This document shows, piece by piece, positions 4,685 through 38,671 of a DNA stretch of 53,016 bases; positions within the stretch are counted from its first letter, which is position 1; each line of letters begins with the position of its first letter. The notes beneath the pieces are model-generated. The model saw only the letters and a program-made list of their open reading frames with translations, had not been told where the DNA came from and did no database searches. A program made the position numbers and the translations under genes. This DNA comes from Hyphomicrobiaceae bacterium (GTDB lineage Bacteria; Pseudomonadota; Alphaproteobacteria; Rhizobiales; Xanthobacteraceae): positions 1 to 53,016 of the forward strand of contig JAJPJB010000091.1 of NCBI GenBank assembly GCA_021324465.1, in the 5' to 3' direction.

Positions 4685-5191
4685 TTACCCGAACTCTCGC
4701 AACAGCGCCAAGAGCTGCGCCCGCCGCTCCGCGCCGATCATTTCTGCCGCTTGCTTCTCATGCCGCGCTGCCAGCCGCTTGATCTGCGCCAGCACTTTCT
4801 GGCCAGCCGGTGTCAGAAGCAGCGAATGGCTGCGGCCGTCGTTGGCGGCCGAGCGGCGTTCGACCCATTGCCGGCGTTCAAGCTCGTGCAACATGCGGGC
4901 GAGCCTCGCCCGCTCGATGTTCAACGTCTTGCTGATCGCCGCCTGCGAACGGCCGGGATTGGCGGCGATGAGGACCAGAACCGAATATTGAGCCGGACGC
5001 ACGTCGAAATCGGCGAGCGTCTCGATAAAGTCTTTGAAGATCGCGACCTGGAGGCGGCGAAGAAAATAGCCGACATGGCCATTGAGCTCGGCAAGATCGA
5101 GCTTGTCGCGCGCGGCACGATTTTTCCCGCGCGGCCGCCCTTCGCCAAAGGCAGCCCGCCTTTTAAGCCCTCGCGTACTGGACGGCGTCAC
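4685..5191 (-). CDS. MarR-family transcriptional regulator (hydroxycinnamate regulator candidate)
   Basis: DNA-binding regulator of about 168 residues with the MarR winged helix: a Q-Y-S-V-L segment, an AISKTLNIERARLARMLHELE recognition helix region and DGRSHSLLLTPAG in the wing. The start is GTG 5191, chosen because GGGAGG stands 7 nt before it; an in-frame ATG at 5221 has no ribosome site. It has a basic N-terminal extension of ~35 residues. It is divergent from the binding-protein gene and the phenylpropanoid genes, with a perfect inverted repeat between. MarR proteins such as CouR of Rhodopseudomonas (p-coumaroyl-CoA responsive) play this role in known systems; the same role here is inferred from context. 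Confidence 0.85.
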   Translation of the reverse strand: MTPSSTRGLKRRAAFGEGRPRGKNRAARDKLDLAELNGHVGYFLRRLQVAIFKDFIETLADFDVRPAQYSVLVLIAANPGRSQAAISKTLNIERARLARMLHELERRQWVERRSAANDGRSHSLLLTPAGQKVLAQIKRLAARHEKQAAEMIGAERRAQLLALLREFG

Positions 5192-22243: not shown

Positions 22244-22282
22244 ATGACAGTGCGCCCGGCCTCCGTTATCTCGGTGCGATGA
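22244..22282 (+). CDS. Putative leader ORF overlapping the glnD start
   Basis: AAGGAGG at 22235-22241 is the best ribosome site upstream of glnD, yet it is not placed for the glnD ATG. It lies 8 nt before GTG 22250 (and 2 nt before in-frame ATG 22244). This frame encodes 10-12 residues and stops at TGA 22280-22282, overlapping the glnD ATGATG. Translational coupling of glnD to a leader peptide is the simplest reading. Expression is not shown. Confidence 0.4.
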   Translation: MTVRPASVISVR

Positions 22283-23166
22283 TGCTCGATGCGCAAAAAG
22301 CCGCGCCAAAATCCGATGCCGCGAGCCTGATCGATCCGGTGGCGGTGGCCGCCGACTTGGCGGAACTCGCCGCGACCTATGCCGGCCGCGAGCGCGAATT
22401 GCGCGCCGCGGTGGCGCAGCGCCTCAAGGCAACACTCAACGAGGCGCGGGCACGCGCCGAAGCTCTGCTGTTGAAGGACCGGCATGGTCGGCGTTGCGCC
22501 GAGCGGCTGTGCCAGATGCACGACGACATCATCCGCGTCCTGTTCGACTTCACCGGCACGGTGCTCTATCCGCCGCGCGTCCTGTCCGAGGCCGAGCGCA
22601 TGGCGGTGGTCGCGACCGGGGGCTACGGGCGGGGACTGCTGGCGCCGGGCTCCGACATCGATCTGCTGTTTCTGTTGCCGTACAAGCAGACCGCCTGGGG
22701 CGAGTCGGTCGCCGAGGCGCTGTTGTATTGTCTCTGGGACATGGGGCTGAAAGTCGGCCATGCCACCCGCTCGGTAAACGACTGCATCCGCCAGGCCAAG
22801 GCCGACATGACCATCCGTACCGCGCTTCTGGAATCGCGCTACCTGTTCGGCGAGAAAAAGCTGTTCGATGAGCTGACGCAGCGCTTCGACAAGGAAGTGG
22901 CGCAGGGCACCGCGCCCGAATTCGTCGCCGCGAAGCTTGCCGAGCGCGAGGAGCGCCATCGCTGTGCCGGTCAGTCGCGCTATCTGGTCGAGCCTAACGT
23001 GAAAGACGGCAAGGGCGGCCTGCGCGACCTGCACACTCTGTTCTGGATCGCCAAATACGTCTATCGCGTGCGCGAGCCGGAGGGGCTGATCGCACGCGGC
23101 GTGTTCGACCGCGACGAATACAGGATGTTCCGCCGCTGCGAGGATTTTCTCTGGTCGGTCCGCTGA
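22279..23166 (+). CDS. glnD: GlnD (PII uridylyltransferase), N-terminal part before an in-frame TGA
   Basis: Bifunctional enzyme that uridylylates and deuridylylates PII in response to glutamine. This 295-residue part holds the nucleotidyltransferase domain: GGYGRG from 114, then PGSDIDLLF with Asp126 and Asp128 as metal ligands, and later YLVEPNVKDGKGGLRDLHTL. It ends FLWSVR-TGA. The frame continues without shift after the TGA with NMHF. Relatives read FLWSVRC[NH][LM]HF as I remember them, so TGA stands exactly where a Cys codon is expected. ATG 22279 (or 22282) is the start; no in-frame start exists upstream before a stop at 22234. Nonsense mutation, sequence error or readthrough cannot be told apart here. 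Confidence 0.9.
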   Translation: MMLDAQKAAPKSDAASLIDPVAVAADLAELAATYAGRERELRAAVAQRLKATLNEARARAEALLLKDRHGRRCAERLCQMHDDIIRVLFDFTGTVLYPPRVLSEAERMAVVATGGYGRGLLAPGSDIDLLFLLPYKQTAWGESVAEALLYCLWDMGLKVGHATRSVNDCIRQAKADMTIRTALLESRYLFGEKKLFDELTQRFDKEVAQGTAPEFVAAKLAEREERHRCAGQSRYLVEPNVKDGKGGLRDLHTLFWIAKYVYRVREPEGLIARGVFDRDEYRMFRRCEDFLWSVR

Positions 23167-23169
23167 AAC

Positions 23170-25074
23170 ATGCATTTTGTCGCCGGTCGGGCCGAGGAGC
23201 GGCTGTCGTTTGACATCCAGCGCGATATCGCGGTGCGGCTCGGCTATACCGCGCATCCAGGCTTGCGCGATGTCGAGCGCTTCATGAAGCACTATTTCTT
23301 GACCGCCAAGCAGGTCGGGGATCTCACCGCCATCCTTTGCTCGGGCCTGGAAGATCTACAGGCCAAGCCTGCGCCGGTCTTGAGCCGCATCATTCCCTGG
23401 CGCTCGCGCACGCTTCGCAGGACGCTTAGCGAATCCGAGGATTTCATCGTCGACAACAACCGCATCAATATCGTGCGCGCCGACGTGTTTCGCCGCGATC
23501 CGGTCAATCTGATTCGGCTGTTTCATCTGGCGCAAAAGCATAATCTTGCCTTCCATCCCGAAGCGATGCGGGCGGCGACGCATTCGCTGAAACTGATCAA
23601 CAAGGACGTCCGCGAGGACGAGGAAGCCAATCGCCTGTTCCTGGAGATTCTCACCTCGAAGAACGATCCGGAGACCGTGCTGCGGCGCATGAACGAAGCC
23701 GGCGTGCTCGGCGCTTTTGTGCATGCCTTCGGGCTGATCGTGGCGATGATGCAGTTCAACATGTATCACAACTACACGGTGGATGAGCATTTGATCCGCT
23801 GCATCGGCGTGCTCAACGAGATCAGCCGCGGCGGGAATCCCGAATTTTCACTCGCCGGCGATCTGATCAAGACGATCCAGCCGCAGCATCATGCCGTGCT
23901 CTGCGTCGCGCTGTTCCTGCACGACATCGCCAAGGGCCGCGTCGAGGATCATTCGCTCGCTGGCGCGCGGTTGGCGCGGCGGCTCTGTCCGCGGCTCGGG
24001 CTCAGCGCCGCCGATACCGAGCTCGTCGCCTGGCTGGTCGAAGTGCATCTGGTGATGTCCACGGTGGCACAGTCGCGCGATCTGTCCGACCGCAAGACGA
24101 TCGAGAACTTCGCTGCGGTGGTGCAGTCGCTCGAGCGGCTGAAGCTTCTGACCATTCTCACCACCGCCGATATTCGCGCCGTCGGTCCCGGCGTGTGGAA
24201 CGGCTGGAAGGCGCAACTCCTGCGCACGCTCTATTACGAGACCGAGCCGGTGCTGACCGGCGGCTTCTCCGAGGTCAATCGCGCGCAGCGCGTCGCCATG
24301 GCGCAGGCCGAATTCCGCGCCGAGCTGAAAGGTTGGCCGGACGAAGAGCTCAGCGCCTATGTCGAGCGGCTCTATCCGGCGTACTGGCTGAAGGTCGATC
24401 TGGCGCACAAGCTCGCGCATGCGCGTTTTGTGCGCGAGACGGAAACGGCGGGACGGAAGCTTGCCACCAGTGTCGGCTTTGATGCGGCGCGCGGGGTCAC
24501 CGAGCTCACGGTGTTTGCGCCGGATCATCCCTGGCTGCTCTCGATCATCGCCGGTGCCTGCGCGCTGGCGGGCGCCAATATCGTCGATGCGCAGATCTAT
24601 ACGACCACCGACGGACTCGCGCTCGACACGATTTCGGTATCGCGTGAATTCGAGCGCGACGAGGACGAGGCGCGGCGCGCCGCGCGCATCAGCGACGCCA
24701 TCGAAAAGGCGCTGCGCGGCGAGATGAAATTGCCGGAGATCGTTGCCAAGCGCGCGCCGGCAAAGGGGCGCCTGAAGGCGTTCGCCATCGAGCCCGAAGT
24801 CACCATCAATAATCAGTGGTCGAGCCGCTACACCGTGGTCGAGGTCACCGGCCTCGACCGGCCGGGCCTCTTGTATGAGCTGACCACGACACTCTCGAAG
24901 CTCAATCTCAATATCGCGTCCGCGCATGTCGCGACCTTCGGCGAACGTGTCGTGGACGTGTTCTATGTCACGGATCTTCTTGGCGCACAGATATCGACGC
25001 CGACGCGGCAAGCCGCGATCAAGCGGCCCCTGCTGGCGCTGTTCGCGCCGCCGGCGGAAGGCAAGGCTGCGTGA
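23170..25074 (+). CDS. glnD: GlnD, C-terminal part (HD and ACT domains)
   Basis: 634 residues in the same frame as the preceding part. It contains AEERLSFDIQRDIAVRLGY, the HD phosphohydrolase (uridylyl-removing) domain with FLHDIAKGR and DHS, and two ACT domains (VFAPDHPWLLSIIAG and EVTGLDRPGLLYELT) that sense glutamine. ATG 23170 lies just one codon after the TGA, so translational restart could produce this half separately, although no ribosome site is obvious. The cut falls inside the helical region between transferase and HD domains, so a two-chain GlnD would need to reassemble. Confidence 0.9.
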   Translation: MHFVAGRAEERLSFDIQRDIAVRLGYTAHPGLRDVERFMKHYFLTAKQVGDLTAILCSGLEDLQAKPAPVLSRIIPWRSRTLRRTLSESEDFIVDNNRINIVRADVFRRDPVNLIRLFHLAQKHNLAFHPEAMRAATHSLKLINKDVREDEEANRLFLEILTSKNDPETVLRRMNEAGVLGAFVHAFGLIVAMMQFNMYHNYTVDEHLIRCIGVLNEISRGGNPEFSLAGDLIKTIQPQHHAVLCVALFLHDIAKGRVEDHSLAGARLARRLCPRLGLSAADTELVAWLVEVHLVMSTVAQSRDLSDRKTIENFAAVVQSLERLKLLTILTTADIRAVGPGVWNGWKAQLLRTLYYETEPVLTGGFSEVNRAQRVAMAQAEFRAELKGWPDEELSAYVERLYPAYWLKVDLAHKLAHARFVRETETAGRKLATSVGFDAARGVTELTVFAPDHPWLLSIIAGACALAGANIVDAQIYTTTDGLALDTISVSREFERDEDEARRAARISDAIEKALRGEMKLPEIVAKRAPAKGRLKAFAIEPEVTINNQWSSRYTVVEVTGLDRPGLLYELTTTLSKLNLNIASAHVATFGERVVDVFYVTDLLGAQISTPTRQAAIKRPLLALFAPPAEGKAA

Positions 25075-38183: not shown

Positions 38184-38671
38184 AAATCATGCGACATGCT
38201 CGCCGAACGCTTCAAGACGCGAGGCACCAAGCCGGAATGGGAGGTCTTCAGCATCTCGCATCTGCTGCAGGACTCGATGCGGCTGATCGAGGCCGGCTAC
38301 GACAAGCCGCCCTATTTCATCAACTTCGTCCTGAATGCCGTCGGCTTCCAGGGCGGCTATCCGTACACGCCGAAAATCCTGCAAACCTGCGTCGACTTCC
38401 TGCCGAAGGACAGCATCTTCTGCGTCAGCGCGATCGGCCCGGCACAATTGCCGGCAACACGCAGGCCATCCTGATGGGCGGCCATATCCGCGTGGGTCTT
38501 GAAGACAACAACTACTATGCGCGCGGCAAGCTGGCGAAAAATGAGGAATTGGTGGCTCGGGCAGTTCGGATCATCCGTGAGCTCGGCGCCGAGCCGGCGA
38601 CGCCGGCCGAAGCGCGCGAAATGGTGGGACTTGCGGCGGTGGCCAAGCCGGCGAGATTCGCGCATGCATGA
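38184..38671 (+). pseudogene. Truncated, frameshifted BKACE (DUF849) beta-keto acid cleavage enzyme
   Basis: The C-terminal half of a beta-keto acid cleavage enzyme: [49 protein letters not shown], then after loss of one base near 38457 in another frame [54 protein letters not shown]. The N-terminal half with the zinc-binding motifs is absent. Enzymes of this family cleave 3-oxo acids with acetyl-CoA. No functional product is expected. Confidence 0.85.

What the first reader, a model, noticed from the sequence alone, without database searches (positions are those of the whole stretch)
22279..25074. glnD broken by a single in-frame TGA at a conserved Cys codon
The frame is intact on both sides and all domains are present. 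TGA replaces the Cys of the conserved FLWSVRC motif, a one-base change from TGC. An ATG follows one codon later. GlnD is central to nitrogen control, so loss would matter. Options: nonsense mutation, assembly error, natural split protein with restart, or recoding. TGA in place of Cys is also the sign of selenocysteine, but GlnD is not a known selenoprotein and I could not find a convincing SECIS stem.
Basis: partly seen in the sequence, partly recalled or inferred. Interest (0 to 1): 0.8.

Follow-up and report, generated by a model that had tools for sequence, protein, structure and literature searches.

The report
Single false-looking stop in glnD
A nitrogen-control gene in the draft genome of an environmental bacterium is cut by one stop codon that its relatives lack, and because the same draft also cuts an essential gene in the same way, this is most likely a sequence error rather than new biology.

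Summary
In detail: one in-frame TGA (window 23164-23166, codon 296) splits a glnD that is otherwise full length and in frame. All 17 same-genus loci that cover the site (16 of 19 congeneric genomes) have Cys TGC, and 80 of 80 wider alphaproteobacterial loci have Cys, so the TGA is private to this assembly. Selenocysteine or recoding is not supported: no selA hit, no selB over cut-off, the tRNA-Sec hit is a tRNA-Ser, no UGA-reading tRNA among 43 tRNA hits, no unusual fold after the TGA, and glnD itself ends in TGA. An evolved split is not supported: the following ATG is an ordinary codon in 15 of 17 congeneric loci. glnD shows no decay (dN/dS 0.11-0.19 against the five closest relatives; relatives' mean 0.15). 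In 1.39 Mb (about 30%) of the same genome, four other genes look cut by a single stop; in two (clpA, accC) relatives all have Glu there. accC was the only copy found and is essential (recalled), so its stop can hardly be real. Best reading: a base error in a draft assembly. A very recent true nonsense mutation remains possible. Raw reads would decide. Low interest.

The parts
22279..23166 (+). N-terminal piece of glnD (295 aa; nucleotidyltransferase and first part of GlnD_UR_UTase)
23164..23166 (+). private in-frame TGA at codon 296, where relatives have Cys
23170..25074 (+). C-terminal piece of glnD (634 aa from the in-frame ATG; rest of GlnD_UR_UTase, HD, ACT)
25072..25074 (+). the gene's own terminal stop, also TGA
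   Evidence: sequence

Best explanation
glnD is an ordinary, intact gene in the living organism, and the TGA is a single-base error in the consensus of a draft assembly (a miscall, damaged template, or thin coverage). Shown: the stop is private to this assembly, the gene shows no decay, and the same assembly has single in-frame stops in other conserved genes, including the only accC found. Inferred: that these stops are errors and that the glnD stop has the same cause. Read data were not available.
For: Private: 17 of 17 same-genus loci TGC, 80 of 80 GTDB loci Cys. No decay: dN/dS against the five closest relatives 0.114-0.190, mean among relatives 0.152; 11 amino-acid changes private to this copy, the stop included, against 0-19 in 13 relatives. 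No second glnD. Other single stops in the same genome: clpA TAG where 11 of 11 aligned relatives have Glu; accC TAA where 17 of 17 aligned relatives have Glu, its two pieces matching TIGR00514 1-240 and 243-446, and only one match at E <= 1e-60 in this genome; an acyl-CoA dehydrogenase TAG and a PaaK-like ligase TAG, less firmly. AccC is essential for fatty acid synthesis (recalled), so that stop is hard to believe. A congeneric draft, G017, also shows one TGA inside accC. glnD 'appears to be essential' in Sinorhizobium meliloti (PMC3596328, passages). Spurious internal stops from assembly are documented (PMC11017572, abstract and passages).
Against: No reads were seen, so an error is not shown. 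The last 400 kb sampled gave no clear case among 17 candidates, so stops are not dense everywhere. The genome scores 99.67% complete with 107 contigs, which is not a poor assembly by those measures. Caulobacter glnD deletion mutants are viable when glutamine is supplied (PMC4848567, passages), so a true glnD loss is possible. The share of G:C>T:A among private substitutions is only slightly higher in this genome (13 of 80 against 58 of 531 in relatives; counted), so a damage signature is not shown.
Confidence: 0.68

Rival explanations
1. A true, very recent nonsense mutation (fixed in the sampled strain or a variant in the population). GlnD activity would be lost, PII proteins would stay unmodified and glutamine synthetase would be kept adenylylated.
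For: A single change from a codon seen in all relatives would produce it. The gene is otherwise intact. glnD loss is survivable in Caulobacter with glutamine (PMC4848567, passages). Other genes of the assembly carry stops, which a genome accumulating real mutations would also show.
Against: The stop in the only accC found would be lethal if real (essentiality recalled). No decay in either half. mutY is present and over cut-off, so no sign of that mutator route (mutM and mutT not searched).
Confidence: 0.26
2. A natural split protein: the 295-aa and 634-aa pieces are made separately, the second by restart at ATG 23170, and act together or alone.
For: ATG lies two codons after the TGA. In Sinorhizobium meliloti a GlnD lacking its N-terminal domain supports viability, though it cannot modify PII (PMC3596328, passages).
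Against: The break lies inside one Pfam domain. The ATG is an ordinary Met codon in 15 of 17 congeneric loci. No Shine-Dalgarno-like stretch by eye, no promoter-like site in 23000-23300. No relative has the split.
Confidence: 0.04
3. Recoding: UGA read as selenocysteine, cysteine or another residue.
For: TGA stands exactly at an invariant Cys.
Against: selA: 0 hits. selB best 179.6 bits against a cut-off of 242.25. The one tRNA-Sec hit over cut-off is a tRNA-Ser with anticodon tga. None of 43 tRNA hits has anticodon tca (42 by ARAGORN, one by eye). Fold after the TGA is not special (z 0.67). The other broken genes have TAG or TAA at Glu positions. glnD ends in TGA. The tRNA list lacks some expected genes such as tRNA-Ile, so it is not complete.
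Confidence: 0.01

Closest known systems
GlnD, [protein-PII] uridylyltransferase/uridylyl-removing enzyme (TIGR01693, NF003467)
   Same: Full set of domains, full length, normal purifying selection
   Different: One in-frame TGA, seen in no relative examined
Spurious internal-stop pseudogenes of draft assemblies (Cooley and Wright 2024, PMC11017572; abstract and passages seen)
   Same: Single base change making an internal stop in an otherwise intact gene; several such genes in one assembly
   Different: No read data or near-identical genome available here to prove the error
Truncated GlnD-sm2 of Sinorhizobium meliloti (PMC3596328, passages seen)
   Same: Would resemble the C-terminal piece if restart happened
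   Different: That one is an engineered deletion; here nothing shows that the C-terminal piece is made

Membership tests
GlnD uridylyltransferase | NT, GlnD_UR_UTase, HD and ACT domains in order | tested here: met
   pieces searched apart; read through, one TGA
GlnD uridylyltransferase | one uninterrupted reading frame | tested here: not met
   TGA at 23164-23166
Selenoprotein | selA, selB and tRNA-Sec in the genome | tested here: not met
Selenoprotein | SECIS-like stem just after the UGA | tested here: not met
   80 nt fold z 0.67; 148 of 200 shuffles fold as well; no Rfam hit in the window at gathering score
UGA reassignment or suppression | tRNA with anticodon tca | tested here: not met
   0 of 43 tRNA hits; list lacks some expected tRNAs
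Artefactual internal stop | private to one assembly, no decay | tested here: met
Artefactual internal stop | same assembly breaks single-copy essential genes | tested here: met
   accC; essentiality is recalled
Artefactual internal stop | raw reads disagree with the consensus | not testable with these tools
   no reads held

The most novel reading that the evidence does not exclude
A free-living alphaproteobacterium that truly runs without full-length GlnD, either by a recent loss or by using the two pieces as a split nitrogen sensor.
Probability: 0.05. Interest if true: 0.45.

Novelty: not a real feature. Interest (0 to 1): 0.08.

Why it matters
If taken at face value the finding would suggest a bacterium without its central nitrogen sensor, or a new selenoprotein. 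Showing that the same draft also breaks its only accC warns against reading single in-frame stops in draft genomes as biology. If the stop were real, it would be a natural glnD loss in a group where a relative's glnD is reported to appear essential.

Tried and rejected
Selenocysteine: selA, selB, tRNA-Sec and folding, rejected. UGA-reading tRNA: rejected as far as the tRNA list goes. Restart: no promoter-like site and an ordinary Met codon in relatives. A second glnD copy: none; the other hit is a GlnE-like 1074-aa frame. A mutator by mutY loss: mutY is present. This is suggestive only. Plasmid records: no match.

Scan of the own genome: 56 mechanical candidates in 993 kb (an earlier stricter pass over 593 kb gave 22), 17 in a further 400 kb with a slightly laxer threshold. 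Of these 73, five were judged interrupted genes. Followed up by family search: L210, L219, L207, L208, L215, the window's 38181 site and glnD; L208 proved to be two neighbouring genes and L215 matched nothing. clpA was tested against relatives. The rest were sorted by eye as neighbouring genes or antisense frames. Control: the same scan on 80 GTDB loci (875 kb) gave 36 candidates, by eye one clear interrupted gene (L026, a MAG); the codon model came from the own genome, so this control is weak. Frameshifts were not scanned.

Calls that failed: script error, wrong file name; rerun; bad search term; asked again with plain terms.

Full report
What is there. The glnD frame runs from ATG 22279 to TGA 25072-25074 with one interruption, TGA 23164-23166 at codon 296. 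The pieces fit NF003467 at 9-298 and 301-927, so two model positions, the stop and the following Asn codon, are all that lies between them. The stop lies inside the GlnD_UR_UTase domain.

Relatives. Of 20 genomes searched in the genus, one is the own genome and 19 are relatives; 16 relatives have a glnD locus covering the site, 17 loci in all, and 17 of 17 have TGC. Of the other three, G005's contig starts after the site, and G003 and G017 gave no glnD. In 80 GTDB loci, 75 have TGC and 5 TGT. No stop was flagged inside the matched part of any relative's glnD. Named close relatives are MAGs of Xanthobacteraceae; the own record is not named.

No decay. dN/dS against the five closest of 13 relatives is 0.190, 0.163, 0.114, 0.158 and 0.128; the mean among relatives is 0.152. 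Against the closest, the N part has 0.250 and the C part 0.167. Private amino-acid changes: 11, the stop included, against 0-19 in the 13 relatives. A gene long dead would look different.

Not recoding. selA gave no hit, selB none over cut-off, and the one tRNA-Sec hit over cut-off is a tRNA-Ser. None of 43 tRNA hits has anticodon tca (the 43rd, at a contig start, reads CAT by eye). The list lacks tRNA-Ile and a few others, so it is not complete. The 80 nt after the stop fold no better than shuffles (z 0.67). A literature search for GlnD with selenocysteine listed 8 of 9 papers; none is about GlnD as a selenoprotein by its title (listing only).

Not an evolved split. The ATG after the stop is present in 15 of 17 congeneric loci as an internal Met, so it did not arise as a start. 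No promoter-like site was found at 23000-23300.

Same kind of break elsewhere. I scanned 1.39 Mb (window plus 67 stretches of 20 kb) for stops inside coding signal. Besides glnD, four genes look cut by one stop. clpA has TAG where 9 relatives have GAG and 2 GAA. accC has TAA where 14 have GAA and 3 GAG; its pieces match TIGR00514 at 1-240 and 243-446, and the own genome has one match at E <= 1e-60. An acyl-CoA dehydrogenase has TAG at a site that varies in relatives (the 7 of 13 relatives with the motif show Glu or Gly); its downstream piece starts at profile position 36-37, while its 101-aa upstream piece matched no family at E <= 0.001 and a 99-aa version gave only chance-like hits. A PaaK-like ligase has TAG, with pieces matching TIGR02155 at 2-237 and 258-422; relatives were not compared. 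The last 400 kb gave no clear case. Different stop codons at Glu and Cys sites speak against a single reassigned codon.

Why error is favoured. AccC is essential (recalled), and this genome has one copy, so its stop is hard to accept as real. The same process explains glnD. Cooley and Wright (PMC11017572, abstract and passages) report that many internal-stop pseudogenes in public bacterial genomes come from assembly, platform and coverage. What this does not show is the reads, so a true recent mutation keeps about a quarter of the probability. If it were real, loss of GlnD would be expected to cause glutamine need, as in Caulobacter (PMC4848567, passages); in Sinorhizobium meliloti glnD is said to appear essential (PMC3596328, passages).

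Verdict. Interest is low.

Noticed in passing
L219:7269-8618 (G000:C3, minus strand): accC, the only close copy found, is cut by an in-frame TAA where 17 of 17 aligned relatives have Glu.
   Followed up: yes
L164:2636-5083 (G000:C3, plus strand): clpA is cut by an in-frame TAG at 4748-4750 where 11 of 11 aligned relatives have Glu.
   Followed up: yes
L210:3366-4700 and L207:798-2249 (minus strand): An acyl-CoA dehydrogenase and a PaaK-like CoA ligase look cut by single TAG codons.
   Followed up: partly
window 38184-38471: A 96-aa piece matching positions 128-215 of 274 of the beta-keto acid cleavage enzyme family (51.4 bits); the 50 aa before its upstream stop match nothing, so it looks like a decayed remnant.
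   Followed up: partly
G003 (congeneric genome, 97% complete): No glnD found in two searches, only a GlnE-like frame; an assembly gap or a real absence.
   Followed up: no
G001: L006 and L024: Two different partial glnD sequences (87% and 72% identical to the query) at the ends of two contigs, perhaps contamination.
   Followed up: no
L026:288-290 (minus strand): The SsuA-like neighbour of glnD in a related MAG is interrupted by an in-frame TAA, judged by eye.
   Followed up: no
L259 (G017 accC): A congeneric draft shows one TGA inside the matched part of accC.
   Followed up: no
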